A stretch of DNA of 64,000 bases from Luteibacter jiangsuensis. Its GTDB lineage: Bacteria > Pseudomonadota > Gammaproteobacteria > Xanthomonadales > Rhodanobacteraceae. The translations under genes were made by a program, and so were the position numbers. Location of the stretch: contig NZ_JAAQQR010000001.1 of the NCBI RefSeq assembly GCF_011742555.1, forward strand, positions 124,001-188,000, in the 5' to 3' direction. This document shows, piece after piece, positions 3,149 to 37,914 of this stretch. The notes beneath the pieces are model-generated. The model searched no databases and had not been told where the DNA came from. It saw only the letters and a list, made by a program, of their open reading frames with translations. How positions within the stretch are numbered: position 1 is the first letter of the stretch; each line of letters opens with the position of its first letter.

Positions 3149-3162
3149 TTGATCCTCGTCAA
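3149..3162 (+). promoter_or_regulatory. FNR/ANR-type box upstream of USP operon
   Basis: TTGATCCTCGTCAA fits TTGAY-N4-RTCAA. It ends 56 nt before the ATG at 3219, and a -10-like TACAAG (3185-3190) follows after 22 nt, placing the box centre about 41.5 bp upstream of a predicted transcription start near 3197, the class II FNR position. Confidence 0.7.
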
Positions 3163-3218
3163 TGTCCTCCCCGGGCGCACCCGTTACAAGGGTGCCATCC
3201 CCCGGGGAGGAACACGCC

Positions 3219-4112
3219 ATGTCCGTCACATCACGCTCCGCAACCACGCGCGTAGGCGAGGCATCCATCGGCTGGCACGACATCGGCAGCCTTGCCGCGC
3301 AGGTCAGCTGCGACAGTGCCGCGCTCGCTGCGGCGGCGACCATCGCCGCCACTGCGAAAGCCAAGGTGAGCGTCATCCAGCTGCTGCCGATGCCCGTGGA
3401 CGCCGCCACCGCCTGGGCGCTCTCCATGGACCCAGCCATTTCCGAGCGTCACGAACAGATCCGTGACGAGGCGCGGCGGCAGGCCCAGGACATTCGCCAT
3501 CGTCTGGCCTCGTATGGCGTTCCAGGTGATGTCACGACCCTCGAGGCCACCTTTCATGACCCCGCCAGTCTCGCTGCACTGGCTGCGCGCAGGACCGATC
3601 TCGTCGTGACCGCGCGCCCCTCGGGGTCGATCGCGGACGCCACCTATACCCACTCGCTCTTCGCAGGTCTCCTGCTCAACTCGGGAAGGCCGGTACTGGT
3701 CGTCCCGGAAGGCGCCAAGATGGCGCTCCCGATCCAGCATGCCGTAATCGCCTGGACCGATTCCCCGGAAGCGACCCGGGCGATGCACGACGCGTTGCCA
3801 TTGCTGCTGAATGCCACCTCCGTCGACCTCGTGACCATCGATCCGCCCGCCTCGCCGCTCGAGAGCACGGCCGATGCAGGGCAAGCCGCCGCGCTCCTGC
3901 TTCGATCGCACGGCGTCAACGTCGCTGTCCACCGGATTCACAGCGAGGGACGCGTGCCGAGCCGCCTGCTCCTGGACTATTGCCGGAACGTGAAAGCCGG
4001 GCTACTCGTTGCGGGTGGTTACGGTCATCCCCGGTGGCGGGAATGGACGGTCGGAGGCACCACGCGCGAGCTCTTTTTCGAAACCACCCTCCCGACGTTC
4101 TTCTCCCACTGA
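3219..4112 (+). CDS. Tandem universal stress protein (UspA family)
   Basis: A 297-residue cytosolic protein with two Usp-fold halves. The ATG at 3219 follows GGGGAGGAACACGCC, a strong ribosome site; the longer frame from 3162 would overlap the promoter. The first half is degenerate; the second (from about residue 160, AVIAWTDSPEATRAMHDALPLL) ends in GGYGHPRWREWTVGGTTREL, a G-2x-G-9x-G-S/T-like nucleotide-binding loop, and closes with PTFFSH. It closely resembles the USPs at 31228, 32165 and 36876, so these are paralogues. First gene of an operon with the attachment, BON and Nramp-like genes; an FNR-type box lies upstream. Confidence 0.88.
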   Translation: MSVTSRSATTRVGEASIGWHDIGSLAAQVSCDSAALAAAATIAATAKAKVSVIQLLPMPVDAATAWALSMDPAISERHEQIRDEARRQAQDIRHRLASYGVPGDVTTLEATFHDPASLAALAARRTDLVVTARPSGSIADATYTHSLFAGLLLNSGRPVLVVPEGAKMALPIQHAVIAWTDSPEATRAMHDALPLLLNATSVDLVTIDPPASPLESTADAGQAAALLLRSHGVNVAVHRIHSEGRVPSRLLLDYCRNVKAGLLVAGGYGHPRWREWTVGGTTRELFFETTLPTFFSH

Positions 4113-4129
4113 CACCCAGGGGGCTTTCC

Positions 4130-4609
4130 ATGTCCACGATCTGGATACTCGCTTGCGATGCCGCAAGAGCGCGGCTGTTCGAAGCACCCGACAGGAAAGG
4201 TGCATGGACCGAGGTGGCCGCATACGCCAATCCCGAACTGAGGGGACCGCCGATGGCCCTCAACACCGGACGCACGGTACCGCGATCGCAGGAGAGCGTT
4301 GGCGGTGCGAGACACGTCATTGAGCCTCGCGAAACCAGAAAGGATCACAGTGCCCGGGCATTCGCGAAGCACATCGTCGGACAACTGGGCGACGCGCATA
4401 CCCACCGTCGCTATACACGGATCTTTCTCGTCGCGCCGCCGCGTTTCCTCGGCATGCTTTGTGAGGAGATCGGCGACTTCGAGCTTGCCGGCGTCGCCGG
4501 CACACTCGGCAAGGATATTGTCGGCTTGCAAGCCGAAACGCTGGAGCGTCATGTGCGCGCCGGTTTTCCCGACGACTTCGCCGCCGAACCGAAGCGGCCT
4601 GCCGCCTGA
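4130..4609 (+). CDS. AtsE/'host attachment' family protein
   Basis: A 159-residue soluble protein of the family annotated 'host attachment protein' after Agrobacterium AtsE. Typical features are the N-terminal beta strand WILACDAARARLFEA, the central ARAFAKHIVGQL helix, and YTRIFLVAPPRFLGML followed by a C-terminal alpha/beta region. This fold resembles release-factor eRF1 domain 2/baeRF proteins, so the name probably does not describe a real adhesion role. It starts 17 nt after the USP stop with no promoter between, so it is probably co-transcribed. Genes of this family are often found beside USP and BON genes. Confidence 0.75.
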   Translation: MSTIWILACDAARARLFEAPDRKGAWTEVAAYANPELRGPPMALNTGRTVPRSQESVGGARHVIEPRETRKDHSARAFAKHIVGQLGDAHTHRRYTRIFLVAPPRFLGMLCEEIGDFELAGVAGTLGKDIVGLQAETLERHVRAGFPDDFAAEPKRPAA

Positions 4610-4707
4610 AGACCGCGGGGCGCCATGACCCGCGGCCGCGATCCCGATCGATTGGAGCGCTTCCCTCCTTGCCAGAAGCAAAGTCCCCTCTCAGCGGAGA
4701 AACGACC

Positions 4708-5370
4708 ATGAACGATATGCAACTTCGTCAGGAAATCATCGAGGAACTCGACTTCGAGCCGGGCATCGATTCCCGTGGCATCGCCGTGTCGGTTGCGGGG
4801 GGCGTGGTTACCCTCAGCGGCCACGTTCCCAGCTATTCGCAGAAGGTGGACGCGGAAAAGGCGGTCTGGCGTATCAAGGGGGTAAAAGCGCTTGCGCAGG
4901 AAATCGAGGTTCGGCTTGCCGAAGACGCGAAGGTCAACGACGACGAGATCGCTACACGCGCCGCCAGGATCCTCGCCTGGAGCAGCGCCGTTCCCACCGA
5001 TTCGATCCGCGTGAAGGTGTCGCATGGATGGATCACCCTGACCGGAACCGTCGACTGGCACTACCAGCGCTTCGCTGCCGAGGCAGCGGTAAGGCGGTTG
5101 ACGGGCATCCACGGTGTGATCAACAACGTGGACATAAAGCAGACGCTGAAGTCGGAAGACGTACGCGACAAGATCAAGGACGCGTTACGCCGCCACGTGG
5201 ACGGTGAAGCCGCGAGGATCCGTATCGATGTCGTAAGCCCTGGCGAGGTCACCCTCGAGGGCGATGTAGGCGACTACGAAGAACGCCGGGCCATAGAGCG
5301 CGCCGCGTGGGCTATTCCGGGGGTCAGGAAGGTACACGACAACCTGCACATCGAATGGCGTGCCGACTAG
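4708..5370 (+). CDS. Three-BON-domain protein
   Basis: A 220-residue protein built of three BON domains (about residues 3-70, 77-145 and 149-217), each with the pattern GVVTLSGHVPSY, GWITLTGTVDWHY or GEVTLEGDVGDY followed by an AERAVWRIKGV-type helix. No signal peptide is seen, so unlike OsmY it appears cytosolic. The ATG at 4708 follows GCGGAGAAACGACC. BON domains are thought to bind membranes or lipids; the role in this stress operon is unknown. The last codons overlap the GTG start of the transporter gene. Confidence 0.85.
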   Translation: MNDMQLRQEIIEELDFEPGIDSRGIAVSVAGGVVTLSGHVPSYSQKVDAEKAVWRIKGVKALAQEIEVRLAEDAKVNDDEIATRAARILAWSSAVPTDSIRVKVSHGWITLTGTVDWHYQRFAAEAAVRRLTGIHGVINNVDIKQTLKSEDVRDKIKDALRRHVDGEAARIRIDVVSPGEVTLEGDVGDYEERRAIERAAWAIPGVRKVHDNLHIEWRAD

Positions 5371-6661: not shown

Positions 6662-7162
6662 TCACGCCCTTCCGGCGAGCAACTCGTCCAGTTGCGCGAA
6701 CTGCTCCGGCAGCCCTTCCGCCGAACCGGCGATGGCGTCGTCGCGGGCCGCTTCGGTGGGATAGAGCTCGTGCAGGGTGACCAGCGTCTTGCCGGCACGC
6801 TCTTCGAACGTCACGGTAGTCACGGCGCCGTCTTCGCTTTCTTCGTTCGTCCACACGATGCGCGTGTTCGCGGTGACTTCCTTGTACGTGCCGAAGAACG
6901 CCATCGGCTGGTCGAAAGCCGGGTGGCGAAACACGAGTCGATACGTGCCTCCGGTGCGAATATCCATGTCGCACGAAACCAGCGTCATGCCCGCGGACTT
7001 CGGCACCCACCATTGCCTGAACAGGTCGGGCGTGCTCCAGGCCTCGAACACGATGGGCACGGGGGCATCGAATGTCCGCGTGACAACGAGTTCGCGATCG
7101 CCTTTGCGTTCCACGGAGGTCGGTTTCATGGCAGCCTGATTACCTTCTCTTTCGTTGGGCAT
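6662..7162 (-). CDS. SRPBCC/AHSA1 domain protein
   Basis: A START-like (Activator of Hsp90 ATPase 1 C-terminal-like) protein with RTFDAPVPIVFEAWSTPDLFRQWW, the GGTYRLVF strand and TTVTFEERAGKTLVTLHE. Start codons are possible at 7162 (MPNEREGNQAAM) or 7129 (MKPTSVERKG); the first overlaps the ArsR gene by 23 nt and favours translational coupling. Such proteins form hydrophobic cavities but the ligand here is unknown. ArsR-AHSA1 pairs are a common two-gene unit. Confidence 0.85.
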   Translation of the reverse strand: MPNEREGNQAAMKPTSVERKGDRELVVTRTFDAPVPIVFEAWSTPDLFRQWWVPKSAGMTLVSCDMDIRTGGTYRLVFRHPAFDQPMAFFGTYKEVTANTRIVWTNEESEDGAVTTVTFEERAGKTLVTLHELYPTEAARDDAIAGSAEGLPEQFAQLDELLAGRA

Positions 7163-7502: not shown

Positions 7503-7512
7503 TTGGTTCACT
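7493..7512. promoter_or_regulatory. Palindromic operator over the ArsR start codon
   Basis: AGTGAACCATTTGGTTCACT has perfect 8-bp arms around ATTT. The CAT inside it is the reverse-strand ATG of the ArsR gene, so binding would block both transcription and initiation. It lies 113 nt upstream of the divergent dehydrogenase gene. Confidence 0.65.
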
Positions 7513-7625
7513 GTAAGCCCGGCATCGGCGGTTTGCAAGTGGCCGCCGAACCTAAACGAACTGTCACGTCCGCAGGACGCGCGGCGACGCTAACATCCCC
7601 AAATCACTCGGAGGGAAGCGCGGAC

Positions 7626-8843: not shown

Positions 8844-8860
8844 CCGTCGTCGACAGTGGT

Positions 8861-10456: not shown

Positions 10457-10546
10457 GGAGTGTCCCCGCCGCTGCCGAACGATGATCAAAAAGAATTGCC
10501 GGGCCGCCCCACGCGAGCCCGGCAAGCGCCATTCACTGGGAGAGAT

Positions 10547-10571: not shown

Positions 10572-10625
10572 AGAACGGCAAACCTCAGGCGGCCGACGCG
10601 TCATGGGGGCCGCCGTGCATCAGGG

Positions 10626-13346: not shown

Positions 13347-15923
<2,577 letters not shown>

Positions 15924-25728: not shown

Positions 25729-26148
25729 ATGAAGATCCTCATAGCCATCGACGGTAGCGCGGCCTCGATTCGCGCACTGCGCTTCGTCCTGCGCCACCAG
25801 GTCGCTACCGAGGGGGCCGAACTGACTCTGATCCACGTCGACGCGCCGCTCAATGGCCACATCGCCACTTACCTGGACGAGGTCTCGATCGCGGCATTCC
25901 ACGCACAGAACCGCCAGACGGCCATGCGGCGGGCGCGAACGGTTCTCCGCGAGGCCGGCGTGGATTACGAGGAAGCCTTCGGCATCGGCGATGCCGCCGA
26001 TGAGATTGCCGCGCTGGCCCGCCGCGGCAAGTTCGACATGATCGCGATGGGTTCGCATGGGCGCAATGCGGTCATGACGGCATTCCTTGGATCAGTTGTC
26101 CGCAAGGTGCTCGAACGCACCAAAGTACCCGTGGTGGTCGTGCGCTGA
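25729..26148 (+). CDS. Single-domain universal stress protein
   Basis: A 139-residue canonical UspA-type protein, MKILIAIDGSAASIRALRFV, with an intact ATP-binding loop GSHGRNAVMTAFLGSV (G-2x-G-9x-G-S) and end VPVVVVR. GGAGACCGCTCC precedes the ATG at 25729. It is the cleanest ATP-binding type USP of the island. The phosphotransacetylase gene follows after 41 nt, probably on the same transcript. Confidence 0.92.
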   Translation: MKILIAIDGSAASIRALRFVLRHQVATEGAELTLIHVDAPLNGHIATYLDEVSIAAFHAQNRQTAMRRARTVLREAGVDYEEAFGIGDAADEIAALARRGKFDMIAMGSHGRNAVMTAFLGSVVRKVLERTKVPVVVVR

Positions 26149-26189: not shown

Positions 26190-27152
26190 ATGTCCCCAAC
26201 GACCAACGAAACGGTTGCCGAAGGCGGCCTGCGTCATCCTCGCTTCCGCTTCCTCCTGGCACGCTGTCGCGATCGGCCGCGGATACCGATGGGCGTGATC
26301 CATCCGTGCAGCGCCGTTTCGCTCGAAGGAGCGCTCGATGCTGCGGCGCGGGGGCTGATCGAGCCCTGGCTGTTCGGCCCCGAGGCACAGATTCGGCAAC
26401 TGGCCGATACCCTGGGCCGCGGTCTCGAAGGCGTTACCCTCCGCGACGCGAGCGACGCCCATGCGGCCGCGCGGGCCGCGGCACTGGCAGGCCGCCGTGG
26501 CGACGTCGCCGCGCTGATGAAAGGCGACATCCACACGGCGGACCTGATGCACGTGCTGCTCGACCGGGACGCCGGCGTGCGCGGCAGCGGACGCATGTCG
26601 CATGCGTTCGCGATCGACACGCCGGCCTACTCGCACCCCGTGGTCATCAGCGACGCGGTGATCCATGTGCACCCCGGTCTCGAGGAAAAGCGCGACATCT
26701 GCCAGAACGCGATCGGGCTGGCGCAGACCATCGGCATCGAGCACAGGCGCGTCGCCGTGCTGGCTGCCGTGGAGACAGTGCACGAGGCCATGCCGGCGAC
26801 GCTGCACGCAGCGGCCCTGGCCAAAATGGCCGAACGCGGCCAGATCGTCGGGGCCGACCTCGAAGGCCCCCTTGCCCTGGACAACGCCATCAGCCACGCC
26901 GCGGCGGACATGAAGCACATCGAGGCGCGGGTCGCCGGAAGGGCCAACATCCTCATCGCCCCCGACCTCGAGTCCGGCAACCTGCTGGCCAAGGCCATGG
27001 TGCTCCTGGCCGATGGCATCGCCGCAGGCATCGTGCTGGGCGCGTCGATTCCGGTCGCCCTCACGAGCCGCGCCGACAGCCCGGCATCGCGCGTGGCATC
27101 GGCCGCCATGGCCGTGCTCGAAGCCACGCGTACGGAACACCCCTTGGGCTGA
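26190..27152 (+). CDS. Phosphate acetyl/butyryl transferase family enzyme
   Basis: A 320-residue protein of the PTA/PTB family, transferring acyl groups between CoA and phosphate. Motifs include ALMKGDIHTADLMHVLL, SHAFAIDTPAYSHPVVISDA and the PDLESGNLLAKAM substrate-phosphate region. It matches the C-terminal domain of the 'bifunctional enoyl-CoA hydratase/phosphate acetyltransferase' type in length, but has no hydratase domain. With an acetate kinase it would give substrate-level ATP under oxygen limitation, but no kinase gene is in the window. Likely co-transcribed with the USP upstream. Confidence 0.82.
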   Translation: MSPTTNETVAEGGLRHPRFRFLLARCRDRPRIPMGVIHPCSAVSLEGALDAAARGLIEPWLFGPEAQIRQLADTLGRGLEGVTLRDASDAHAAARAAALAGRRGDVAALMKGDIHTADLMHVLLDRDAGVRGSGRMSHAFAIDTPAYSHPVVISDAVIHVHPGLEEKRDICQNAIGLAQTIGIEHRRVAVLAAVETVHEAMPATLHAAALAKMAERGQIVGADLEGPLALDNAISHAAADMKHIEARVAGRANILIAPDLESGNLLAKAMVLLADGIAAGIVLGASIPVALTSRADSPASRVASAAMAVLEATRTEHPLG

Positions 27153-27259: not shown

Positions 27260-27997
27260 ATGGCGGCCGACAAATCGGGCGACACGTTACTGATCGTCGA
27301 CGACGAAATCGACGTGACGACGCTGCTGTCGCGCTATTTCTCCGCCCAGGGTTTCCAGGTGCTCACCGCCGGCGATGGCAACGAGATGCGCCGCACGATC
27401 GCCGACCAGCCGGTCGACCTCGTCCTGCTCGATCTCGGCCTGCCCGGGGAAGACGGGTTCGCCCTCACGCGCTACCTGCGCGAGCAATGGCGTGGCCCCG
27501 TGGTGATCGTTACCGGGCGTGGCGAGTCGGTCGACCGCATTGTCGGCCTCGAACTGGGCGCGGACGACTACGTGACCAAGCCCTTCGACCTGCGTGAGCT
27601 GCTGGCCCGCGTTCGCAGCGTGCTGCGGCGTACACGCGGCTCTTCGGAGTCCACTCCTCCGTCGCCACCCGCGACACCCGGCGGATTCGCCTTCGACCGT
27701 TTCGTTCTGGACCTGCGCACGCATACGCTCGCCGACCGCGAGGGCTGCCGCGTCGAACTGACTACGGGCGAATTCGCCCTGCTGAAGACGCTCGTGGAGC
27801 ACCCCAACCAGGTGATGACCCGCGACCAGTTGATGAACCATGTGCATGGGCGCGAGGCGGGTCCGTTCGACCGCGCCATCGACGTGCAGGTGGGCCGCCT
27901 TCGCCGCAAGATCGAATCCGATCCGGCGCAGCCGCAGTTGATCAAGTCGGTGCGGGGTACCGGCTATCTCTTCACTCCCACGGTTCAACGCACATGA
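27260..27997 (+). CDS. OmpR-family response regulator
   Basis: A 245-residue regulator. The receiver has acidic D14/D15, phospho-acceptor D58 in LVLLDLGLPGEDG and K107 in YVTKPFD. The C-terminal winged helix has FALLKTLVEHPNQVMTRDQL, DVQVGRLRRKIE and RGTGYLF. The stop overlaps the ATG of the kinase gene by 4 nt (ATGA), so the pair is co-translated. Target genes are not evident from the sequence. Confidence 0.92.
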   Translation: MAADKSGDTLLIVDDEIDVTTLLSRYFSAQGFQVLTAGDGNEMRRTIADQPVDLVLLDLGLPGEDGFALTRYLREQWRGPVVIVTGRGESVDRIVGLELGADDYVTKPFDLRELLARVRSVLRRTRGSSESTPPSPPATPGGFAFDRFVLDLRTHTLADREGCRVELTTGEFALLKTLVEHPNQVMTRDQLMNHVHGREAGPFDRAIDVQVGRLRRKIESDPAQPQLIKSVRGTGYLFTPTVQRT

Positions 27998-29994
27998 CTT
28001 TATGGCCGAACCGTTCTGCGGACGCCGCCCTCTTCAGGGCCCTGTTCGAAACGGCCCCGGACGCCATGGTGGTCGTGGACAAGTCGGGCACCATCGTGCT
28101 GGCCAACCCGCGGGCCGAATCCCTCTTCGGCTACGCGCCGGGCACGCTGGCCGGGCAGCTCATCGAGATACTGCTCCCTGACCAGGTGCGCGCACTGCAC
28201 GTGGCACACCGCACGCATTACATGGACAGCCCGCGCGTCCGGCCCATGGGCGCCGGCTATGAACTCACGGGCGTGCGGGCGGACGGCTCGCCGTTTCCCG
28301 TGGAAATCGGCCTGAGTCCGATCGCCGGCGGCCCGGAGGCCCTGTTCGCCGCATCCATCCGCGACATCTCGGAAACGCAGCGCGCCCGTCAGGCACTTGC
28401 CCGCAGCGCCTACGATGCCGCGTTGGCGGACATCAGCCGACGCATCCTCGTCGCGCCCAGCCACGAGGCGGCCCTCGCCGAGATACCCGTATTGATCGCG
28501 TCGGCGCTGAGCGCGCCGGCGGTCGCGATCCTGCTGACCGACCCGCACGGGGACAAGCCTCGCGTCAGCGGCTCCTCGGGGCTCGATCCGGCATTCACGG
28601 AAAAGCTGTCGCACGCGCCCTGGTTCCCGATGCTGGATGCGCTGCAGCGCGGGAGGATGGAGGCGGGCGAGGTGGTCGAATTCCCCGCTATCGACGGCGC
28701 GCCGTCGCCACGCGCCGTACTGGCCACGTTGCCGGACCGGCGGGCGCCCGCCGGCTATCTGGTCGCATGGCTTCCCCCCGGCAACGGAAACGGCAGCGAT
28801 CGCGACAGGCACCACTTCGTGGGCGCCGTGGCCAACGTGCTTTCGGGAGCCATCCAGCGTGGACGCGCCGACGAGCAACTGGCCCATGCCCAGCGCCTGG
28901 ACGCCCTGGGTCAGCTTACCGGCGGCATCGCGCACGACTTCAATAACCTGCTCACGATCATCTCCGGAAACCTGCAGTTGCTGGAGATGGACGGCGCCAA
29001 GGACCCCGAAACCGCGGAAGTCGTGGCAAGCGCGTCGCGCGCCGTGGAACGAGGGTCGGCACTTACCCGGAAGCTGCTCGGCTTCTCGCGGCGCCAGCGC
29101 CTCACCCCGCGCGCTGTGCGGCCGGAATTGCTCCTGGCCGACTTGAGCGACATGCTCGGCCGCACGCTGGGCGAGCAGATTCGCGTGATGGCGAGTTGCA
29201 CGGACGCCCTGCCCGCCGTGTTCGCCGATCCGGGCGAACTGGAGGCCGCGTTGATCAATCTCGCCTTGAACGCGCGAGACGCCATGCCGAACGGCGGCAA
29301 GTTGATCATCTCGGCCCGGGCGCTGGAGGTCCAGACAGGCGAGGACCTCGCGCCGGGCTCCTACGTAGTGTTTTCGGTGGCGGACACCGGCGTCGGCATG
29401 CCGCCGGAAGTCAGTGCCCGTGCCTTCGAACCCTTCTTCACCACGAAGGGTCCCGGCAAGGGGAGCGGACTCGGCCTCAGCATGGTCTATGGGTTCGTGA
29501 AGCAATCGGGGGGGCGGCTCACGCTGGAAAGCGAAGTCGGCGCGGGCACGCGAATCGAGATGGTGCTCCCCGTGGCCGGCGCGGAGGTCGTCGGGCCGAC
29601 GGAAACGTCAGCCGTTGCCTCGAGCGGCGCGAGCATCCTCGTGGTCGAGGACGAACCCGAAGTGCGCCGAATCGCAGCGTCCTTCCTTCGCTCGGCGGGC
29701 TACGTACCCCTGGAGGCCGCCGATACCGCGTCGGCTCGCGCCATTTTCGACGCCCACGAGGACATCGAGATGCTGTTCACGGACGTCGTGCTCGGCGCCG
29801 GCGAATCCGGTATCGAGCTGGCCCACGAACTCAAGGCGCGGCGCCCGGCGCTCAAGGTACTGCTCACCTCGGGCTACGAATTCGATTCACGAGGCGACGA
29901 CCCCGCCGAAGAACCGGCCTTCCCTCTCCTGCGCAAGCCGTATCGACGCGAAGAACTGATCGCCGTCTGGCAGCGCGTTCTATCGCAGCCCTGA
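27994..29994 (+). CDS. Soluble PAS-GAF hybrid histidine kinase
   Basis: A 666-residue kinase with no membrane segment. Order: PAS (about 10-130), GAF-like (about 140-290), HisKA with H314 in GGIAHDFNNLL, HATPase (NLALNARDAMPNGG, DTGVGMPPEV, KGSGLGLSMVYGF) and a C-terminal receiver with D597 in MLFTDVVLG. The PAS contains RALHVAHRTHY with H69 in the place where FixL-type haem PAS domains have the proximal His, and MGAGYELTGVRADGSPFPVE, so an oxygen- or redox-sensing PAS is possible; the same pattern occurs in non-haem PAS domains. Its stop abuts the convergent Crp/Fnr gene. Confidence 0.9.
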   Translation: MTLWPNRSADAALFRALFETAPDAMVVVDKSGTIVLANPRAESLFGYAPGTLAGQLIEILLPDQVRALHVAHRTHYMDSPRVRPMGAGYELTGVRADGSPFPVEIGLSPIAGGPEALFAASIRDISETQRARQALARSAYDAALADISRRILVAPSHEAALAEIPVLIASALSAPAVAILLTDPHGDKPRVSGSSGLDPAFTEKLSHAPWFPMLDALQRGRMEAGEVVEFPAIDGAPSPRAVLATLPDRRAPAGYLVAWLPPGNGNGSDRDRHHFVGAVANVLSGAIQRGRADEQLAHAQRLDALGQLTGGIAHDFNNLLTIISGNLQLLEMDGAKDPETAEVVASASRAVERGSALTRKLLGFSRRQRLTPRAVRPELLLADLSDMLGRTLGEQIRVMASCTDALPAVFADPGELEAALINLALNARDAMPNGGKLIISARALEVQTGEDLAPGSYVVFSVADTGVGMPPEVSARAFEPFFTTKGPGKGSGLGLSMVYGFVKQSGGRLTLESEVGAGTRIEMVLPVAGAEVVGPTETSAVASSGASILVVEDEPEVRRIAASFLRSAGYVPLEAADTASARAIFDAHEDIEMLFTDVVLGAGESGIELAHELKARRPALKVLLTSGYEFDSRGDDPAEEPAFPLLRKPYRREELIAVWQRVLSQP

Positions 29995-30711
29995 TCAGGC
30001 GGCGACGGCCATCTCGCGCAGGCCTTCCGCATCGAGCACGCGCACTTCCCGGCGCTGAACGCTGATGAAGTGGCGATCGGCCAGGTGCGAGAGGGCGCGG
30101 CTTACCGTCTCGTGCTTGATCGCCAGGAAGCTGGCGATGTCCAGACGGCTCATGCGCAGGATGAAGTGCTTCGCGCTGTAGCCCATGCGTGCCTGTCTCG
30201 CCGCCATATCGATGAGGAACGCAGCGACTCGCGGCTCGGCGGCAAGCGTGGAGAGCAGCAGCATCCAGCTGCGGTCGCAGCGAATCTCCGCGGCAAGCGC
30301 AGCATGGATCTGCTCCTGCAAGCCGGTGACATGCGCAGCGGCCTTCATCACGGCCGGATACGGCAACTCCCAGCTTTCGCTGTCTTCGAGGGCAACGGCA
30401 TCGCACGCGTAGGAGCCGAGACCGATCGAATCCACCCCGATCAGCTCGCCGCGCATCTTGAACGCCGTGACCCTCTCCCGACCGTCGTCGGTCAGGCCGG
30501 ATGTCTTGAACGATCCCGAATGGATGAGGTGCAGCGCACGAAACGGCTGGCCCGCGTGGAACAGGTGCTGCCCGGCCTTGTGCTTCCGCCGGGTGACCGC
30601 GAGGTGCTGCTGCAGCGCCTCCAGATCGAGGCAGGCATCCGACGATGGTGCCGTAGGCCAGACCGTCCATGGAAGGGAGCGGGTGGATGAAGGGTCGATG
30701 CTCGTGCTCAC
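29995..30711 (-). CDS. Crp/Fnr-family regulator, FNR-type DNA reading head, no N-terminal Cys cluster
   Basis: A 238-residue regulator. Start GTG 30711 follows GGGAGACCCACC; the frame runs upstream to 30891 without a comparable ribosome site. The cyclic-nucleotide-like beta-roll (HLFHAGQPFRALHLIHSGSF) is followed by an HTH with E201-T-V-S204-R205, the E-x-x-S-R combination by which FNR reads TTGAT half-sites. Only C27, C103 and C145 are present, without the closely spaced CxxC ligands of [4Fe-4S] FNR, so its signal must differ. It is the best candidate for the TTGAY-N4-RTCAA boxes of the island. Confidence 0.88.
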   Translation of the reverse strand: MSTSIDPSSTRSLPWTVWPTAPSSDACLDLEALQQHLAVTRRKHKAGQHLFHAGQPFRALHLIHSGSFKTSGLTDDGRERVTAFKMRGELIGVDSIGLGSYACDAVALEDSESWELPYPAVMKAAAHVTGLQEQIHAALAAEIRCDRSWMLLLSTLAAEPRVAAFLIDMAARQARMGYSAKHFILRMSRLDIASFLAIKHETVSRALSHLADRHFISVQRREVRVLDAEGLREMAVAA

Positions 30712-30835
30712 GGTGGGTCTCCCTGGTTCGATCTCTATGCCGTGTAGCCACGTTAAACGCCGTCCGTCACGGAACGTGTTCTGTACCGCAACGGTTCGTA
30801 ACACTTTGTAACGGTTGCGCCGGATTTGTCCTCTT

Positions 30836-30849
30836 TTGACGGGCGTCAA
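30836..30849 (+). promoter_or_regulatory. FNR/ANR-type box upstream of truncated USP
   Basis: TTGACGGGCGTCAA, a perfect inverted repeat with 5-bp arms. It ends 59 nt before TTG 30909. A start at ATG 30849 would overlap the box, and ATG 30876 would precede the expected transcription start. Confidence 0.62.
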
Positions 30850-30908: not shown

Positions 30909-31280
30909 TTGTTTCCCCACCTGCTCGTCGCGATCGATGGCCGTGCCGGCACGCCGCGCGACGTTGCCCTTGGTTTCCGTATTGCCTCGCGCATCGGCGC
31001 CCGGGTCACCGTGCTGTTCATCGTCACGCCGGCGAACGGTGGCACCCAGCCGTCGTGGGGGCCCCGTTCGCAGGATGCCATCGACGCCGGCGAACGCCTG
31101 TTCCGCCACGTACGCCAGATGGCCGCGACGGCGGGCGTGCCATGCGTATGCCGCTATGCCTTCGGAAACGACGCCGAGATGATCGTGCGCGAGGCGTCCA
31201 CCGCGCACCGTTGCGACCTGGTGCTGTTCAATGCGCCAGCAGCAGGGGTACCCGAGACCGGTGCAACAGTGCTCGGGTAA
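30909..31280 (+). CDS. Universal stress protein with truncated C-terminus
   Basis: A USP half-domain, LFPHLLVAIDGRAGTPRDVA then RIGARVTVLFIVTPA and CDLVLFNAPAAG. The start TTG 30909 (after AAGGTG) is chosen because it gives the MFPHLL-type start and fits the box spacing; ATG 30876 is the alternative. The protein stops about where the G-2x-G-9x-G-S ATP loop should begin, and its last ~17 codons lie antisense to the end of the convergent USP (53-nt overlap). It may be a decaying copy. Confidence 0.65.
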   Translation: MFPHLLVAIDGRAGTPRDVALGFRIASRIGARVTVLFIVTPANGGTQPSWGPRSQDAIDAGERLFRHVRQMAATAGVPCVCRYAFGNDAEMIVREASTAHRCDLVLFNAPAAGVPETGATVLG

Positions 31281-32164: not shown

Positions 32165-33055
32165 TCAGTGGGCGAAAAGCACTGGCACGCGTGCCTGGAA
32201 GAACAGGTCGCGGGTCGTGCCACCGATGACCCATTCGCGAACCTTGCCGTGTCCGTATCCGCCGGCGACGATCAGCTCCGCTGAAACATGCTGGGCGTGC
32301 GCAAGGATCGATTCGCCGATCGACCGGCCGCGCGACTTGCAGGTATCCAGGTGCGCCGCAATGCCATGGCGGCGCAGATAGCCGAGCGCGCCGCTGCCGC
32401 GGTCCTCCCGCGCTTCCAGCGCGTTGGCGACCGGATCGACCAGCAGCACGTTCACACGCTCGCACCCCTCGAGAAGAGGAAGTGCCTCCCTCAGGGCCCG
32501 TGCGGCTTCGGGCGTGTCCGACCACGCCACGAGCGCGCGTCGCGGCGGGTACGGCTGCAGATCGTTCGGTGGAACCACCACGATGGGGCGTCCCGATTCG
32601 TGCAGCAGCGCCGAGAAGTAGGTGTGGGCAATCGCCACGTCAGCCTGTCCATCCTCGGGTCGCGCCAGAACCACGAGGTCGCTCGAACGCGCGGCACCGG
32701 CGGCCAGGCTGGCGGGTTCCACGCACAGGGCTTCCAGCGTGCGAACGTCGCCCGGCACGCCCAGCCCCGCCAGCGTCTTGCGGGTGGAATCCGCCGCAGC
32801 GCGCGCCGATTCGCGCAAGTCATCGTAGATCTGGGGGAAGCTCGGATCGGGGATCATGGCCCATGCGTCGATCATCGGTGCGGGCATCACCATGAGCTGC
32901 AGCACCTGCAGCCTTGCATCGAACTGGCGGGCCACCGCGCCGGCGAATTCGATGGCGAGGGCATCGCTCCGCGTCTGCACCAGTGCCACGGCGATCTCGC
33001 GCCAGGGTGAGCTCACCGCATGGGGAACGGTCGTTTGGCTGGCAGGGAGGGACAT
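32165..33055 (-). CDS. Tandem universal stress protein
   Basis: A 296-residue two-domain USP starting MSLPASQTTVPHAV. The first half carries IAVALVQTRSDALAIEFAG and VLQLMVMPAPMIDAWAMIPD; the second has ALVAWSDTPEAARALREALPLLEG and GGYGHGKVREWVIGGTTRDL, ending VPVLFAH. Very close to the USPs at 3219 and 36876. An FNR-type box sits 57 nt upstream with TACAAC (33086-33091, minus strand) between box and gene. Confidence 0.88.
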   Translation of the reverse strand: MSLPASQTTVPHAVSSPWREIAVALVQTRSDALAIEFAGAVARQFDARLQVLQLMVMPAPMIDAWAMIPDPSFPQIYDDLRESARAAADSTRKTLAGLGVPGDVRTLEALCVEPASLAAGAARSSDLVVLARPEDGQADVAIAHTYFSALLHESGRPIVVVPPNDLQPYPPRRALVAWSDTPEAARALREALPLLEGCERVNVLLVDPVANALEAREDRGSGALGYLRRHGIAAHLDTCKSRGRSIGESILAHAQHVSAELIVAGGYGHGKVREWVIGGTTRDLFFQARVPVLFAH

Positions 33056-33112: not shown

Positions 33113-33126
33113 TTGACGCACGTCAA
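33113..33126 (-). promoter_or_regulatory. FNR/ANR-type box upstream of the 33055 USP operon
   Basis: TTGACGCACGTCAA, perfect 5-bp arms. It is 57 nt from the start, with minus-strand TACAAC 21 nt downstream. It overlaps the last four bases of the preceding USP gene. Confidence 0.7.
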
Positions 33127-33731
33127 CTGGGTACGGCGGACTCGCCGGGTGCGGCGCTCCGGCACGTGAGCAGCGGCACGCTCGTTCGCGCGGCGACGCG
33201 ACGCGCAAGGCGGCCACCCCGCGCGCCCATCACGACGAGGTCGCAGCCGGTGTCCGCCACTGCCTGCAGAATGGCCCGGTCCGGATGCGGGTCGTAGGCC
33301 AGTCGCGTTTCGCAACGGACTCCCGCGTTCATGGCAAGCGAGCGCTGTCGTTCCAGGTTGCGTTCGGCGAGTGCGGCGCAGTCCGGGTCCACGGCGACCT
33401 CGGCGGCCGCGAACAGGCGCGCCAACACGCGCCCTCCCCGCCACGGCGTCGCCGCGTGCAGGAAGACGACGGACGCGACCAGGGCCTTGGCGAGCGAAAC
33501 CCCGAGCGCTGCCGCGTCGTCGGCAAGGGCCGATCCATCCGTCGCTATGAGTATCCGCGTAAATGGCGGCTTGCACTCGGTGACCATGTCGCCGCGCGGC
33601 AAGGTTTTTGCGCACGTTCGGCAGAGCAGGCGCAGTGTGTCGCCCGAAGGCAGCAGTTCGTCGGGAACCTCGCCTTCGGCGATGGGCTGGCGCAGGAGCG
33701 ATCGGTACGGCGTCGACGGCACTTTGTCCAT
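33123..33731 (-). CDS. Universal stress protein with N-terminal extension
   Basis: A 202-residue protein. ATG 33731 follows GGGAGGCCGCC. About 65 N-terminal residues precede the Usp domain and contain CRTCAKTLPRGDMVTECKPP, a Cys pair that could bind metal or sense redox. The Usp domain runs from ILIATDGSALADDAAALG to GARGGRLARRVAARTSVPLL; the loop is shortened relative to G-2x-G-9x-G-S. An FNR-type box lies 65 nt upstream. Confidence 0.82.
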   Translation of the reverse strand: MDKVPSTPYRSLLRQPIAEGEVPDELLPSGDTLRLLCRTCAKTLPRGDMVTECKPPFTRILIATDGSALADDAAALGVSLAKALVASVVFLHAATPWRGGRVLARLFAAAEVAVDPDCAALAERNLERQRSLAMNAGVRCETRLAYDPHPDRAILQAVADTGCDLVVMGARGGRLARRVAARTSVPLLTCRSAAPGESAVPS

Positions 33732-33796: not shown

Positions 33797-33810
33797 TTGA
33801 TCGCGGTCAA
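33797..33810 (-). promoter_or_regulatory. FNR/ANR-type box for the 33731 USP
   Basis: TTGATCGCGGTCAA. It is 65 nt from the ATG at 33731, the second-longest spacing in the set, and 33 bp from the box serving the divergent USP. Confidence 0.62.
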
Positions 33811-33843: not shown

Positions 33844-33857
33844 TTGACCGGTATCAA
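33844..33857 (+). promoter_or_regulatory. FNR/ANR-type box for the 33913 USP
   Basis: TTGACCGGTATCAA, one base from the perfect FNR palindrome. A -10-like TAAAAG (33879-33884) lies 21 nt downstream and the ATG 55 nt downstream. Confidence 0.7.
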
Positions 33858-33912
33858 GTCGGCCTGGCGCCCAAGTCGTAAAAGGGTGTATCGACCCTCG
33901 TCTGGAGCGGAC

Positions 33913-34803
33913 ATGAACACGACCAAATCCTCGCAAGACACCGCATCCTGCTCACCGGCCAGCTGTCTGCCGCCCGTGGGCGATGTGCTTGCGATCGTCT
34001 CCGGCCCCCGCGAAGGCGCCGCCTACGTTGCCAGCCGCCTGGCTGCGCGCGACGGCGGATCGGTGACGGGCTGCGAAGCGTCGCCCGCGTTCCTGGGCGG
34101 CCGCGCCTTCCGCACGGACGCCACCGTTGCAGCGCTGCTGCAGCCCGCGCCGTCTGCCCAGCGCAAGGATGACCTGCGCCTGGGTGGCGATGGCGACGAG
34201 TTCATACGCATGGCCGAGACTGCCGGGGCACACGGTCCGCAGTGGGCGGTGCTGGGGAATGATCCCAACCATACGCTTGCGATGTTGAGCGCCTGGCACG
34301 ACCTGATCGTCGTCCAGCGGCCGGCCGACCCTCACGCCGACCCGCTCGAAGGATTGGGCTCCCTGTTGACCGGCACGGGCCTGCCTTGCCTCGTACTGCC
34401 AGACGTCTGTGCGCCGTCCGGCGTTTTCGATCGCGTGCTGCTGGCCTGGGACGGCAGCCGGCCGGCCATCCGTGCGATTCGCGCGGCATTGCCGCTCGTG
34501 GCGGCGGCCCAGCACGTGCTCCTGCTCGACGGGTGCGCAGCGCATGGGGCTGCCGGGGACAACGCGCCAACCTTCGATCCCATGGCGTTCCTGGCGCAGC
34601 ACGGCATCGAGGCGACCCATCAGCGCATGCATGCTTCCCCGGCCGAAGCGGGCGCCGCTATCCTCAAACACGCACGCCAGTACAAGGCCGATCTGCTCGT
34701 CATGGGCGCCTATGGACACACGCCGCTGAGGGAAAGGCTGTTCGGCGGCGCCACGCGGCACGTGCTTGCCCATGGCAACCTGCCCGCCTTCCTCTACCAC
34801 TGA
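33913..34803 (+). CDS. Tandem universal stress protein, divergent type
   Basis: A 296-residue protein with ribosome site GGAGCGGAC before ATG 33913. The N-terminal half (VGDVLAIVSGPREGAAYVAS) is strongly diverged; the C-terminal half is USP-like with RVLLAWDGSRPAIRAIRAAL and an intact-looking loop GAYGHTPLRERLFGGATRHV, ending LPAFLYH. The N-terminal region has two Cys (CSPASC). Confidence 0.82.
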   Translation: MNTTKSSQDTASCSPASCLPPVGDVLAIVSGPREGAAYVASRLAARDGGSVTGCEASPAFLGGRAFRTDATVAALLQPAPSAQRKDDLRLGGDGDEFIRMAETAGAHGPQWAVLGNDPNHTLAMLSAWHDLIVVQRPADPHADPLEGLGSLLTGTGLPCLVLPDVCAPSGVFDRVLLAWDGSRPAIRAIRAALPLVAAAQHVLLLDGCAAHGAAGDNAPTFDPMAFLAQHGIEATHQRMHASPAEAGAAILKHARQYKADLLVMGAYGHTPLRERLFGGATRHVLAHGNLPAFLYH

Positions 34804-34821: not shown

Positions 34822-36204
34822 CTAAGCGAGCCGGCAGGGAGCGTCCAGCGCCGGACATGCCACGGAGATACCGCGTGCACGCAGCAGCTGTTCCATGACC
34901 TGCATGCCACCGTCCGGCTCCCCGTGCACCAGCAGCACCTTACGCCGCGGCGAATTCCCCAGCCACGCCAGCAGTTCCGGCTGCCCCGCATGCGCCGAGA
35001 AACCGTTGATCGTCCAGATGTGCGCGCGTACGGCGACGTCGTGGCGACCGATACGAACGCGCTTCTGTCCGTCGATGATCCGCCTCGCCAGCGTCCCCTC
35101 GGCGGCGTAACCCACGAACACGACGCCCGCCCGGTCCCGGTCCAGGTTGTGCAGGAGGTGATGCACCACGCGGCCGCCCGTACACATACCCGAGCCGGCA
35201 AGAATGATCGCACCGCCTTCGATCGTGTTGATCGCCATCGAGTCGTCCACACCGCGGGTGAAGCGCACGTGCGGCATGTCGAAGGGATCTTCCCGGGCCA
35301 GCAACGCGCGAAAGGCGTCGCTCAGGCCTTCCGGATGGCGCCGGAACACCTCCGTGGCGGAGATCGCCATGGGCGAATCCAGGAACACCGGCGTATTCGC
35401 GGGAATCGCTCCGCTTCGCATGCCCCGGTGCAGGCAGTAGAGGATTTCCTGTGCGCGTTCCAGGGCGAACGTGGGAACGATCACATTGCCATGCCGTCGC
35501 AGTGTGGTGGCCACGGCCTCGAAGAACTCGTTTTCCGTCGCCGCGAAATCGCGGTGCGGCCGGTCTCCATAGGTTGTTTCCATGACCACGACGTCGGCTT
35601 CCGGAGCGGGCGCGAGCTCGCGCAACATGCCGCTGCCGTGATGGCCGAGGTCGCCGGAGAAGACCATCCGCCGCCGGTTCGTCCCGTCGTCCAGTTCCAG
35701 CAGGATGCTGGCCGAGCCGAGGATGTGCCCCGCATCGAGGAAGGTGGCGCGGATTCCCGGTGCCACCTCGCGTGTTTCCCCATATCCGACGGCCCCGTCG
35801 AATGCCTCCATCGCGAGGAACGCGTCCGCGATGGTCGTGAATGGCGCGGCGTTCACGTCGCCGCGCGCGGCAGCCCGGCGCGCTTCCTGTTCCTGGAGCG
35901 ATGCGGCGTCCAACAACACGATGCGGGCGAGATCCCTTGTGGCGGCGGTGGACAGGACAGGCCCGGTGAAGCCATCGCGGACCAGCTTCGGCAACCTGCC
36001 ACAATGGTCCAGGTGCGCGTGCGTCAGCAGCACGGCATCGACCGAGCGCGGATCGAACGCGAACCCACGGACGTTCGCGTCGTCGGCATCACGACCGCCC
36101 TGGAACATGCCGCAATCGATCAGGACCTGGCTGCTGCCGCATTGCACGAGGTGACAGGAACCGGTGACGCCGCGCGCAGCGCCATGGCAGGTGTAGACGA
36201 TCAC
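34822..36204 (-). CDS. MBL-fold/beta-CASP exonuclease-like protein
   Basis: A 460-residue metallo-beta-lactamase with beta-CASP domain, the YSH1/RNase J-like RNA-processing family. Motif 2 is LTHAHLDHCGRLP; further ligands occur in DAGHILGSASILLE and FSGDLGHHG, and the beta-CASP part has VPTFALERAQEIL, GSGMCTGGRVVHH and GFSAHAGQPELLAWL. Such proteins often sit in USP and PTA islands. It starts 18 nt after the GNAT stop, so it should share the FNR-type promoter of that gene. Confidence 0.88.
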   Translation of the reverse strand: MIVYTCHGAARGVTGSCHLVQCGSSQVLIDCGMFQGGRDADDANVRGFAFDPRSVDAVLLTHAHLDHCGRLPKLVRDGFTGPVLSTAATRDLARIVLLDAASLQEQEARRAAARGDVNAAPFTTIADAFLAMEAFDGAVGYGETREVAPGIRATFLDAGHILGSASILLELDDGTNRRRMVFSGDLGHHGSGMLRELAPAPEADVVVMETTYGDRPHRDFAATENEFFEAVATTLRRHGNVIVPTFALERAQEILYCLHRGMRSGAIPANTPVFLDSPMAISATEVFRRHPEGLSDAFRALLAREDPFDMPHVRFTRGVDDSMAINTIEGGAIILAGSGMCTGGRVVHHLLHNLDRDRAGVVFVGYAAEGTLARRIIDGQKRVRIGRHDVAVRAHIWTINGFSAHAGQPELLAWLGNSPRRKVLLVHGEPDGGMQVMEQLLRARGISVACPALDAPCRLA

Positions 36205-36222: not shown

Positions 36223-36783
36223 TCAGAGCAGCAGGGTGTGGATGACGAGCGACGGATCGTCGGCGTCCTGTTTACGCGAGAAACCCAGAAACTCCGCCAG
36301 CTCCCGCATATCGTCGTTCTCGCCCAGGTCCCTCGAGTAGAGCGCCTTGAACCCTTCATGGCGCGCCACCTCGATAAGATGGCGCATGAGCAGCACCGCC
36401 AGGCCGCGGTGCCGCCAGTCGTCCGCCACCGTGACCGCGCATTCGCACCGCTCCATGCCCGGGTCGGCGGCATAGCGGCTGATGCCCACTTCACGTAATT
36501 CACCGTTGTCATGGGCGAGTGCGACGAAGGCCATCGCCCGGCGGCCGTCCACGTTCATGAGCTGGTCCAGCAGCCCTGGGGACGCTTCGCGGATCTCTCC
36601 CAGGAACCGGTTTCGGCGCGACGTGGAGGACAGCCGCCGGATGAAGGCCGCTTCCCTTGCGCGATCCTCCGGGCGCAGGGGACGGACGAGCACATGGGTG
36701 CCGTCCGCCAGCGTTTCGATCCAATGGTCGCCTTCGATGGCGGGGAAATCGGGTTTCGCCGATCCGGGGGTCGTTGCTGACAT
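36223..36783 (-). CDS. GNAT-family N-acetyltransferase
   Basis: A 186-residue acetyltransferase starting at ATG 36783 after GGAGAATCCGCC. The acetyl-CoA loop is VADDWRHRGLAVLLMRHLIE (R-x-x-G-x-A), preceded by RAMAFVALAHDNGELREVGI. Such GNATs occur alone or fused to acyl-CoA synthetases, where they acetylate metabolic enzymes; the target here is unknown. An FNR-type box lies 58 nt upstream. Confidence 0.86.
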   Translation of the reverse strand: MSATTPGSAKPDFPAIEGDHWIETLADGTHVLVRPLRPEDRAREAAFIRRLSSTSRRNRFLGEIREASPGLLDQLMNVDGRRAMAFVALAHDNGELREVGISRYAADPGMERCECAVTVADDWRHRGLAVLLMRHLIEVARHEGFKALYSRDLGENDDMRELAEFLGFSRKQDADDPSLVIHTLLL

Positions 36784-36841: not shown

Positions 36842-36855
36842 TTGACCGACATCAA
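36842..36855 (-). promoter_or_regulatory. FNR/ANR-type box for the GNAT-MBL operon
   Basis: TTGACCGACATCAA on the plus strand. It is 58 nt from the ATG at 36783, with a minus-strand TTTATACC -10-like element (36814-36821) about 20-22 nt downstream. Confidence 0.7.
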
Positions 36856-36875
36856 GCCAGACACATCCCGTGGCC

Positions 36876-37814
36876 CTAGTGCGCGAAAAGAACGGGAATG
36901 GACGATTCATGGAAGAGCTCGCGCGTGGTGCCGCCGATGGCCCATTCGCGCATCCGTCCGTGTCCGTATCCCCCGGCAACGATGAGTTGCGCCTGCTTGC
37001 GGTACGCCTGCTCCAGCAGCGCGCGGCTGACGGGCGAACGGCCCGACGAACAGAGCGTGACTTCGGCGCGTACGCCGTGGTGGCGCAGGTGAGTCGCAAG
37101 CCCTTCGACCGACTCTTCCACTGCGTCTTTAGAATCCTTAGGCGCGTTCACGACCACGATGTCGACCGCTTCGGCCGTTTCGAGGAGTGGCAGGGCGTCG
37201 TGCGCGGCGCGGCTCGCTTCCGGAGTATCGGCCCAGCCGACGACTGCCCTTCTCGGCGGCATGCGAGCCGATGTGCCCTCGGGCACCACCAGCACGGGAC
37301 GCCCCGATTCCAGCAGCACGCCGGCGAAATAGGCGTGCGCTATTGCCGCGTCGGATGAGGTCGTTGCGGGACGGCCGATGACCGCCAGGTCCGACCTGCG
37401 CACCGCCGCAGCGGCCATCGAGGGAGGCGCGGAGCATAATGCTTCAAGGGTGAGCACATCGCCCTGTACGCACATGGCCGACATTCGGTGCTGCATTTCC
37501 CGCGCCTGCCGCGCGGCGTCGGCACGAATCTTCGCGAACCGCTCGATCAACGCGGGATCGGGAACCAAGGCCCAGGCATCCGGTGCCTCCACCGGCATCG
37601 CGACCATCTGCAGGATATGCAGGTGCCCCCCGGCTCGCCGCGCGAGGCCGCCCGCGCACGTGATCGCCAGGGTGTCACCCGGCAAGTGCGCGACCACGAC
37701 GGCAATGTCGCGGAACATGGTCACCGGGTCGGCTTCGTGCTTTCGCGCCGGTTCGCCGAGCGCGCGCCAGTCGAGCGCGTCGGCCGGATCCTGCGGAAAC
37801 ATGTTCTCGTTCAT
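36876..37814 (-). CDS. Tandem universal stress protein
   Basis: A 312-residue two-domain USP. ATG 37814 (MNENMFPQDPADALDWRALG) follows GGAAGGTG; a GTG at 37823 is possible. The second half has AVVGWADTPEASRAAHDALPLLET and GGYGHGRMREWAIGGTTREL, ending IPVLFAH. The first half holds VVAHLPGDTLAITCAGGLA and QMVAMPVEAPDAWALVPD, matching the same positions in the 3219 and 32165 proteins. Confidence 0.88.
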   Translation of the reverse strand: MNENMFPQDPADALDWRALGEPARKHEADPVTMFRDIAVVVAHLPGDTLAITCAGGLARRAGGHLHILQMVAMPVEAPDAWALVPDPALIERFAKIRADAARQAREMQHRMSAMCVQGDVLTLEALCSAPPSMAAAAVRRSDLAVIGRPATTSSDAAIAHAYFAGVLLESGRPVLVVPEGTSARMPPRRAVVGWADTPEASRAAHDALPLLETAEAVDIVVVNAPKDSKDAVEESVEGLATHLRHHGVRAEVTLCSSGRSPVSRALLEQAYRKQAQLIVAGGYGHGRMREWAIGGTTRELFHESSIPVLFAH

Positions 37815-37874
37815 TGCCGTCACCTTCCATTCGTGCTGGAGGTGTTGTTGTACGACCGGCGTCTTCTGGGGCGA

Positions 37875-37888
37875 TTGACACAGGTCAA
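37875..37888 (-). promoter_or_regulatory. FNR/ANR-type box for the 37814 USP
   Basis: TTGACACAGGTCAA, perfect 5-bp arms. Minus-strand TACAAC (37847-37852) lies 22 nt downstream and the ATG 60 nt downstream. It is 12 bp from the next box, which faces the other way. Confidence 0.7.
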
Positions 37889-37900
37889 TCGCGCCTCGTC

Positions 37901-37914
37901 TTGATCCCGGTCAA
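37901..37914 (+). promoter_or_regulatory. FNR/ANR-type box for the 37972 USP
   Basis: TTGATCCCGGTCAA, 57 nt upstream of ATG 37972. The -10 at the expected place (CATCCT, 37936-37941) is weak. Confidence 0.66.

What the first reader, a model, noticed from the sequence alone, without database searches (positions are those of the whole stretch)
3149..37914. Island-wide FNR-type regulon with fixed promoter geometry
Nine sites all fit TTGAY-N4-RTCAA (3149, 25638, 30836, 33113, 33797, 33844, 36842, 37875, 37901). They lie 55-65 nt from the start codon of their genes, with one exception at 77 nt. At least five have a TACAAC/G, TAAAAG or TTTATACC -10-like element 20-22 nt downstream, which centres the box near -41.5. 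The downstream units carry nine USP genes, a PTA, GNAT, beta-CASP MBL, BON, AtsE-type, Nramp-like, DUF2238 and DUF4010 genes. This looks like one oxygen- or redox-controlled stress regulon, similar in idea to the low-oxygen-activated locus of Burkholderia, with a repeated promoter cassette.
Basis: partly seen in the sequence, partly recalled or inferred. Interest (0 to 1): 0.82.

Follow-up and report, generated by a model that had tools for sequence, protein, structure and literature searches.

The report
Luteibacter stress island with FixK-like circuit
A soil bacterium keeps a block of survival genes whose switches look alike and appear to be thrown by a two-step control circuit encoded in the same block, resembling low-oxygen survival systems of other bacteria but wired differently.

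Summary
The nine boxes are real: 9 found, 0.08 expected. The genome has 24 (reversed-pattern control 2); 12 lie in 59 kb here, three of them left of the window. Box-to-start spacing and a -10 element 21-22 nt past the box are near-constant and recur in related loci. The nearest named relative is a Luteibacter.

The likely reader is the Crp/Fnr protein at 29995-30711. It keeps an FNR-type recognition helix but lacks the Fe-S cysteines, so it is FixK-like, not an FNR oxygen sensor. In three relatives with 10-24 boxes, the only other Crp-type protein found is Clp-like.

New: most orthologous crp promoters hold GTTAC-N5-GTTAC, usually with a third copy, 32 nt before a -10. Of 62 strict triple repeats in 197 genomes, 49 lie just upstream of a Crp/Fnr gene. 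This fits binding by the neighbouring OmpR-type regulator, whose hybrid kinase has a FixL-like PAS domain.

Best reading: a two-tier FixLJ-FixK-like cascade driving an lxa/DosR-like survival island. Protein binding and the oxygen signal are inferred, not shown.

The parts
3149..3162 (+). Box; promoter of the USP gene at 3219-4112, probably an operon with 4253-4609 (Host_attach/AtsE-type), 4708-5370 (BON) and 5465-6628 (Nramp)
   Evidence: operon extent inferred
3219..4112 (+). USP gene
   Evidence: Pfam Usp 32.6 bits
25638..25651 (+). Box; promoter of USP-PTA (25729-27152) and perhaps of the regulator and kinase genes; may also serve DUF2238/DUF4010 on the other strand
   Evidence: weak -10 (AAAAAT); operon extent inferred
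25729..26148 (+). USP gene
   Evidence: Pfam
26190..27152 (+). Phosphate acetyl/butyryltransferase-type gene
   Evidence: Pfam PTA_PTB
27260..27997 (+). OmpR-type response regulator; candidate reader of the GTTAC repeat
   Evidence: Response_reg + Trans_reg_C; co-inherited with crp
27994..29994 (+). Hybrid histidine kinase with FixL-like PAS, HisKA, HATPase and receiver domain; candidate heme ligand His69
   Evidence: heme binding inferred
29995..30711 (-). Crp/Fnr protein without Fe-S ligands; candidate reader of the boxes
30750..30755 (-). Predicted -10 (TAACGT) of the crp gene, 32 nt after the third repeat
   Evidence: alignment of 35 regions; position in the window counted by hand
30788..30812 (-). 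Triple direct repeat GTTAC-N5-GTTAC-N5-GTTGC, candidate response-regulator site
30836..30849 (+). Box between crp and a USP gene; fits the USP promoter geometry if that gene starts at TTG 30909; possible feedback on crp
30909..31280 (+). USP gene (start codon inferred)
   Evidence: Pfam 24.1 bits
31228..32148 (-). USP gene
   Evidence: Pfam
32165..33055 (-). USP gene
   Evidence: Pfam
33113..33126 (-). Box for 32165-33055 (and 31228-32148)
33123..33731 (-). USP gene
   Evidence: Pfam
33797..33810 (-). Box for 33123-33731; weak -10
33844..33857 (+). Box for 33913-34803
33913..34803 (+). USP gene
   Evidence: Pfam (given as 33910-34803)
34822..36204 (-). Beta-CASP metallo-beta-lactamase-type nuclease
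   Evidence: Pfam; orthologues in the same eight genus genomes as crp
36223..36783 (-). GNAT acetyltransferase
   Evidence: Pfam
36842..36855 (-). Box for 36223-36783 and 34822-36204; not aligned in relative G112
36876..37814 (-). USP gene
   Evidence: Pfam
37875..37888 (-). Box for 36876-37814
37901..37914 (+). Box for 37972-38850
37972..38850 (+). Tandem-domain USP gene
   Evidence: Pfam

Best explanation
This is a survival regulon inherited together with its own controllers. Step 1 (inferred): the hybrid PAS kinase at 27994-29994, probably sensing low oxygen or another heme ligand, passes phosphate to the OmpR-type regulator at 27260-27997. Step 2 (conserved site shown, binding inferred): the regulator binds the GTTAC triple repeat and switches on the adjacent crp gene. 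Step 3 (sites, geometry, selection and co-inheritance shown; binding and activation inferred): the Crp/Fnr protein, which lacks the Fe-S ligands, binds TTGAY-N4-RTCAA centred near -41.5 and activates about a dozen short-leader promoters as a class II activator. Step 4 (inferred from families): the products, nine USPs here plus PTA, GNAT, beta-CASP nuclease, BON, Hsp20 and others, favour survival without growth. A box ahead of USP-PTA-regulator-kinase would give positive feedback.
For: Box enrichment. Conserved gap: 63 of 131 intergenic boxes in 31 relatives' loci have a start codon at 52-68 nt against 154 of 1860 random intergenic positions. TA at +22 to +24 in 28 of 69 aligned promoters. TTGA/TCAA letters identical at 104 of 104 against flanks 949 of 1314 between own and G112, 13 of 14 promoters aligned. 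Eight genus genomes with the protein have 10-24 boxes, eleven without it 1-12; the mean is higher with it in 12 of 12 mixed genera. In G047, G112 and G152 the only other HTH_Crp_2 protein found is Clp-like. Repeat: 36 of 39 crp upstream regions; 49 of 62 strict copies in 197 genomes lie 73-191 nt upstream of a Crp/Fnr gene; TA at +33 in 28 of 35. PAS best matches FixL, E 3e-19; His69 in 32 of 32 ungapped rows.
Against: No expression or binding data. The genome also has an FNR with the Fe-S motif. G170 and G196 have 9 and 10 boxes with neither protein found, so boxes also have other users or background. G010, G133 and G178 carry a Cys-rich FNR-like paralogue, so only three genomes dissociate cleanly. 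Co-inheritance of boxes and protein is partly expected because the island genes travel with both. The FixL distal Arg is replaced by Tyr or Gln. 18 of 63 genomes with the crp orthologue lack the strict triple repeat, and 8 of 134 without it have one.
Confidence: 0.7

Rival explanations
1. The boxes are read mainly by the Fe-S FNR encoded on C16; the island is part of the ordinary FNR regulon and the local Crp/Fnr is minor.
For: A protein with the Fe-S motif is present and FNR boxes have this consensus; a box stands by cydA/ompW near fnr (names by eye).
Against: Six genus genomes with the island give only weak matches to this FNR (E 1e-30 to 7e-33). Three of them have a diverged Cys-rich FNR-like paralogue, but G047, G112 and G152 have 24, 18 and 10 boxes and only the island and a Clp-like protein. 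Eight genus genomes with the FNR but no island protein have 1-12 boxes.
Confidence: 0.12
2. The Crp/Fnr protein senses a signal itself (heme, NO, nucleotide) and the two-component pair is only a neighbour.
For: Other Fe-S-less relatives such as DNR sense ligands directly (recalled); a cNMP_binding fold is present.
Against: The kinase-regulator pair sits beside crp in 31 of 32 loci, the exception being a 4-kb contig, and the crp promoter carries a rare conserved repeat.
Confidence: 0.12
3. The cascade is as described but the signal is not oxygen (for example envelope, metal or nutrient stress).
For: Heme binding is not shown; the distal residue differs from FixL; USPs answer many stresses.
Against: 13 of the 14 PDB sequences matched at E up to 1e-5 by the PAS are FixL or Dos proteins; gene types match lxa and DosR (PMC6127331, passages).
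Confidence: 0.25
4. The boxes are chance matches.
For: Short, partly degenerate pattern.
Against: in the 80 loci the reversed control pattern gave 0 matches.
Confidence: 0.01

Closest known systems
FixLJ-FixK2 cascade (Bradyrhizobium) and FixLJ-fixK (Burkholderia dolosa)
   Same: Kinase with a FixL-like PAS, a response regulator whose likely target is a Crp/Fnr gene, and an activator without Fe-S ligands reading FNR-type boxes (PMC6515984 and PMC5234846, passages).
   Different: The regulator is OmpR-type, not FixJ/LuxR-type; the kinase is a hybrid with its own receiver; the activator is nearer FNR than FixK2; the candidate site is a GTTAC triple repeat.
lxa locus of Burkholderia cenocepacia
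   Same: Block rich in USPs with Hsp20-type chaperone and metabolic genes; a Crp-type regulator suspected (PMC6127331, passages).
   Different: There BCAM0049 is not in the BCAM0276-0319 run (by gene numbers) and the pair is called FixLJ; here controllers sit inside the block. Gene order and orthology were not compared.
Mycobacterial DosR regulon
   Same: Hypoxia-type gene set: USPs, alpha-crystallin (PMC6127331, passages); erythromycin-esterase/PRTase and CBS proteins recalled.
   Different: DosR acts directly as one tier (recalled); here a Crp/Fnr tier with FNR-type boxes intervenes.
FNR/ANR control of USP genes (Pseudomonas, Herbaspirillum)
   Same: USP genes under FNR-type control in low oxygen (PMC6127331, PMC5934665, passages).
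   Different: There an oxygen-sensing FNR/ANR (Fe-S cluster recalled); here the controller has no such ligands.

Membership tests
FNR ([4Fe-4S] oxygen sensor) | N-terminal Cys motif (C-x2-C...C) and a further Cys ligand | tested here: not met
   Motif in 0 of 32 island-type proteins, 22 of 23 canonical-like; fourth Cys position holds Trp
FNR ([4Fe-4S] oxygen sensor) | Recognition helix with E..SR | tested here: met
   HETVSR in the window protein (HETVSR or HETVTR in the 14 aligned orthologues); role of these residues recalled
FNR-type regulon | TTGAY-N4-RTCAA centred at -41.5 | tested here: met
   transcription starts not mapped
FixLJ-FixK cascade | FixL-type heme PAS kinase | tested here: inconclusive
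   PAS E 3e-19 to FixL, His69 conserved, distal Arg replaced; heme not tested
FixLJ-FixK cascade | FixJ-type (LuxR/GerE) response regulator | tested here: not met
   Trans_reg_C, OmpR type
FixLJ-FixK cascade | Response regulator controls the fixK gene | tested here: inconclusive
   Conserved repeat upstream of crp; binding not shown
lxa locus | Induction in low oxygen | not testable with these tools
   needs expression data
lxa locus | Orthologous gene content and order | not tested
   no Burkholderia lxa DNA was compared
DosR regulon | NarL-type DosR with GAF-heme kinases | tested here: not met
   OmpR-type regulator and PAS kinase; definition recalled

The most novel reading that the evidence does not exclude
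In Rhodanobacteraceae a FixLJ-FixK-like two-tier circuit was assembled independently: a FixL-like hybrid kinase and an OmpR-type regulator with very few genomic targets (one or a few strict triple GTTAC sites per genome) drive an FNR-derived activator that lost its Fe-S sensor. The circuit is inherited with its dormancy-type island as one unit and persists in species that lack an Fe-S FNR.
Probability: 0.5. Interest if true: 0.72.

Novelty: new variant of a known kind. Interest (0 to 1): 0.62.

Why it matters
It suggests that USP-rich low-oxygen survival blocks like lxa and DosR recur in a family of soil and plant bacteria under different wiring, and it names one testable master switch. The candidate regulator site is so rare (two-copy form twice in this genome) that it allows a clean test of how a sensing tier is coupled to an FNR-derived activator that no longer carries the Fe-S sensor. 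Six literature searches on these topics listed no paper on such a regulon in Luteibacter, Rhodanobacter or relatives; only part of the matches was listed, and the library holds open-licence papers only.

Tried and rejected
Chance origin: rejected. The local Crp/Fnr as an Fe-S oxygen sensor: rejected on missing ligands. Cys-based redox sensing in it: unlikely, since no Cys is among the invariant or nearly invariant columns of A1, an alignment of 14 island-type proteins and one FNR. The Fe-S FNR as sole regulator: disfavoured. Lower-ranked, mostly beta-proteobacterial hits (L118-L165 other than L122 and L134) as the same system: not accepted, since only three of them (L135, L158, L159) had a kinase match, of 30-38% identity, and none had a regulator match.

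On checking I corrected an earlier view: of six genus genomes without a close FNR match, G010, G133 and G178 hold an FNR-like paralogue with C-x3-C-x5-C near its start, which my first motif test missed. Only G047, G112 and G152 are clean. The odds of the best and novel readings were set with this in mind.

Rows dropped or limits: L086 (near-identical sister) left out; one search keeps only boxes with a start codon 50-68 nt away; one search drops L093, L110 and L134 (no two exact GTTAC copies) and uses the first repeat per region; one search counts one genome twice (L089 and G178), 25638 and C16:76414 align to the same G112 box and 36842 did not align. The clustering P value uses an interval chosen after seeing the sites. 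The orthologue set (63 of 197 genomes) was my cut, about E 1e-60. One search used only Crp/Fnr positions listed. Beta-CASP and regulator searches covered 23 genus genomes, crp 19 of them; the kinase was not searched genus-wide. Of 24 HTH_Crp_2 hits, 19 were inspected. No structure prediction was run.
Full report
What is in the window. The window is C11:124001-188000 of a 4.33-Mb genome. The nearest named locus is from Luteibacter sp. SG786, with 94% identity of the Crp/Fnr protein; I call the genus Luteibacter on that ground. TTGAY-N4-RTCAA occurs nine times where 0.08 are expected. The genome has 24 such sites against 2 for the reversed pattern, and 12 of the 24 lie in C11:103199-161914 (Poisson 2e-15 for an interval picked after the fact). 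Three lie left of the window, near genes of the erythromycin-esterase, Hsp20 and phosphoribosyltransferase-hydrolase types. Two on C16 stand beside what I read as glycogen enzymes and beside a USP followed by what I read as a P-type ATPase and a CBS protein (all but the USP by eye). In relative G112 counterparts of these pieces lie together, with 13 boxes in about 31.5 kb, one of them inside a called gene. The window version is therefore split: no perfect box lies between 3163 and 25637.

Geometry. Gaps from box to start codon are 55-65 nt, with one of 77 (one gap assumes a TTG start). In 31 relatives' loci that carry the same crp and kinase genes, 131 of 138 boxes are intergenic. Of these 131, 63 have a start codon 52-68 nt away, against 154 of 1860 random intergenic positions. 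In 69 promoters aligned on the box and picked for a gap of 50-68 nt, TA stands at +22 to +24 in 28, against 0 to 4 at every other single position, and T at +27 in 55%. That is a -10 element where a class II promoter needs it.

Selection. In 13 of 14 own promoters alignable to G112, TTGA and TCAA are identical at 104 of 104 letters, the Y/R letters change only by transition (7 of 26), and flanks are identical at 949 of 1314. Two of the 13 align to the same G112 box; the fourteenth (36842) did not align.

Which protein reads them. The genome has three HTH_Crp_2 proteins above cut-off and one hit below: the island protein, an FNR with the Fe-S motif on C16, and one on C13 that I read as Clp-like. 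The island protein's best PDB match is an FNR (E 4e-33); FixK2 follows at E 4e-16. It keeps HETVSR, but the Fe-S motif is found in 0 of 32 island-type proteins, against 22 of 23 canonical-like ones. Of 19 genus genomes, the eight with this protein have 24, 23, 24, 20, 18, 18, 10 and 13 boxes, and the eleven without have 6, 12, 5, 4, 4, 1, 1, 9, 12, 3 and 10. Over 197 genomes the mean is 21.9 with (63) and 13.8 without (134); it is higher with the protein in 12 of 12 mixed genera, permutation p 0.0005, the floor of 2000 shuffles. Six of the eight have only weak matches to the Fe-S FNR. Three of those six (G010, G133, G178) carry a diverged FNR-like paralogue with C-x3-C-x5-C. In the other three (G047, G112, G152) the only HTH_Crp_2 proteins found are the island one and a Clp-like one. 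Against a simple one-to-one link, G170 and G196 have 9 and 10 boxes with neither protein.

The tier above. Kinase and crp genes stand together in 32 named loci, and the response regulator is there too in 31; the exception is a 4-kb contig. These are mostly Rhodanobacteraceae, with a Lysobacter and a Stenotrophomonas. Close orthologues of the beta-CASP protein and of the regulator (61% identity or more) occur in the same eight genus genomes as crp; 23 were searched, crp itself in 19. Upstream of crp, 36 of 39 regions (one genome counted twice) hold GTTAC-N5-GTTAC. In 35 of 38 regions aligned, a third, looser copy usually follows, then 32 nt, then TA-N3-T: TA at +33 in 28 of 35, T at +38 in 91%. 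The two-copy form occurs twice in this genome. The strict three-copy form occurs 62 times in 197 genomes, 0 for the reversed pattern. Of these, 49 lie 73-191 nt upstream, same strand, of a Crp/Fnr gene; strict copies are in 45 of 63 genomes with the crp orthologue and 8 of 134 without. In L109, L111 and L113 a second copy lies between the regulator gene and a divergent USP gene. Direct repeats of about one DNA turn are typical of OmpR-family sites (general knowledge), so the neighbouring regulator is the natural reader. Binding is not shown.

The sensor. The kinase PAS matches FixL at E 3e-19; of 14 distinct PDB sequences at E up to 1e-5, 13 are FixL or Dos proteins. His69 aligns with the FixL heme histidine (His200, recalled) and is present in 32 of 32 ungapped rows. 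The position of the FixL distal arginine (recalled) holds Tyr or Gln in 31 of 33 rows. Heme and oxygen sensing are likely, not shown.

Comparison. I read passages, not whole papers. PMC6127331 describes lxa with six USPs and alpha-crystallin, the Crp-type BCAM0049 and the parallel with DosR. PMC3759415 and PMC9104464 report BCAM0049 up in low oxygen and loss of anoxic survival without both anr genes in strain H111, which lacks lxa. PMC5234846 shows FixLJ inducing fixK in B. dolosa; PMC6515984 states that FixLJ induces fixK2; PMC5934665 lists two USPs among strongly activated Fnr targets. The window system works like FixLJ-FixK but is not a member: its regulator is OmpR-type and its activator is nearer FNR. 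It resembles lxa in gene types; membership was not tested.

Verdict. The regulon is very probably real. Its reader is probably the island Crp/Fnr protein, itself probably switched on by the two-component pair beside it. Oxygen as the signal is the least certain step.

Noticed in passing
window 6662-22320: Segment without boxes that splits the block: my readings by eye include a TonB-type receptor, a tryptophan-halogenase-like gene and a LacI-type regulator; a metallo-beta-lactamase and a cytochrome P460 gene by Pfam.
   Followed up: no
window 42304-62633: Exopolysaccharide-type gene cluster (chain-length, glycosyltransferase and sugar-nucleotide genes, read by eye).
   Followed up: no
L109:13523, L111:13717, L113:13554: Second copy of the triple GTTAC repeat between the response-regulator gene and a divergent USP gene, suggesting direct USP control by the regulator in some relatives.
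   Followed up: partly
G003:C11:39727 and G058:C98:22010: Strict triple repeat upstream of a more distant Crp/Fnr gene (36-38% identity) in genus 4, so the promoter design may be older than this orthologue group.
   Followed up: no
L173, L174, L178 (G178, G133, G010): Diverged FNR-like paralogue with C-x3-C-x5-C near its start and an ATVTR helix instead of ETVSR.
   Followed up: partly
L080-L082 (G042): 16 boxes in 55 kb, including boxes ahead of genes that look like nitrate reductase (by eye) and a homologue of the gene at C16:255967 that I read as hemN, supporting a low-oxygen role there.
   Followed up: no
G000:C14:233204-233218: The only other two-copy GTTAC repeat in the genome, upstream of an unassigned 411-aa reading frame.
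   Followed up: no
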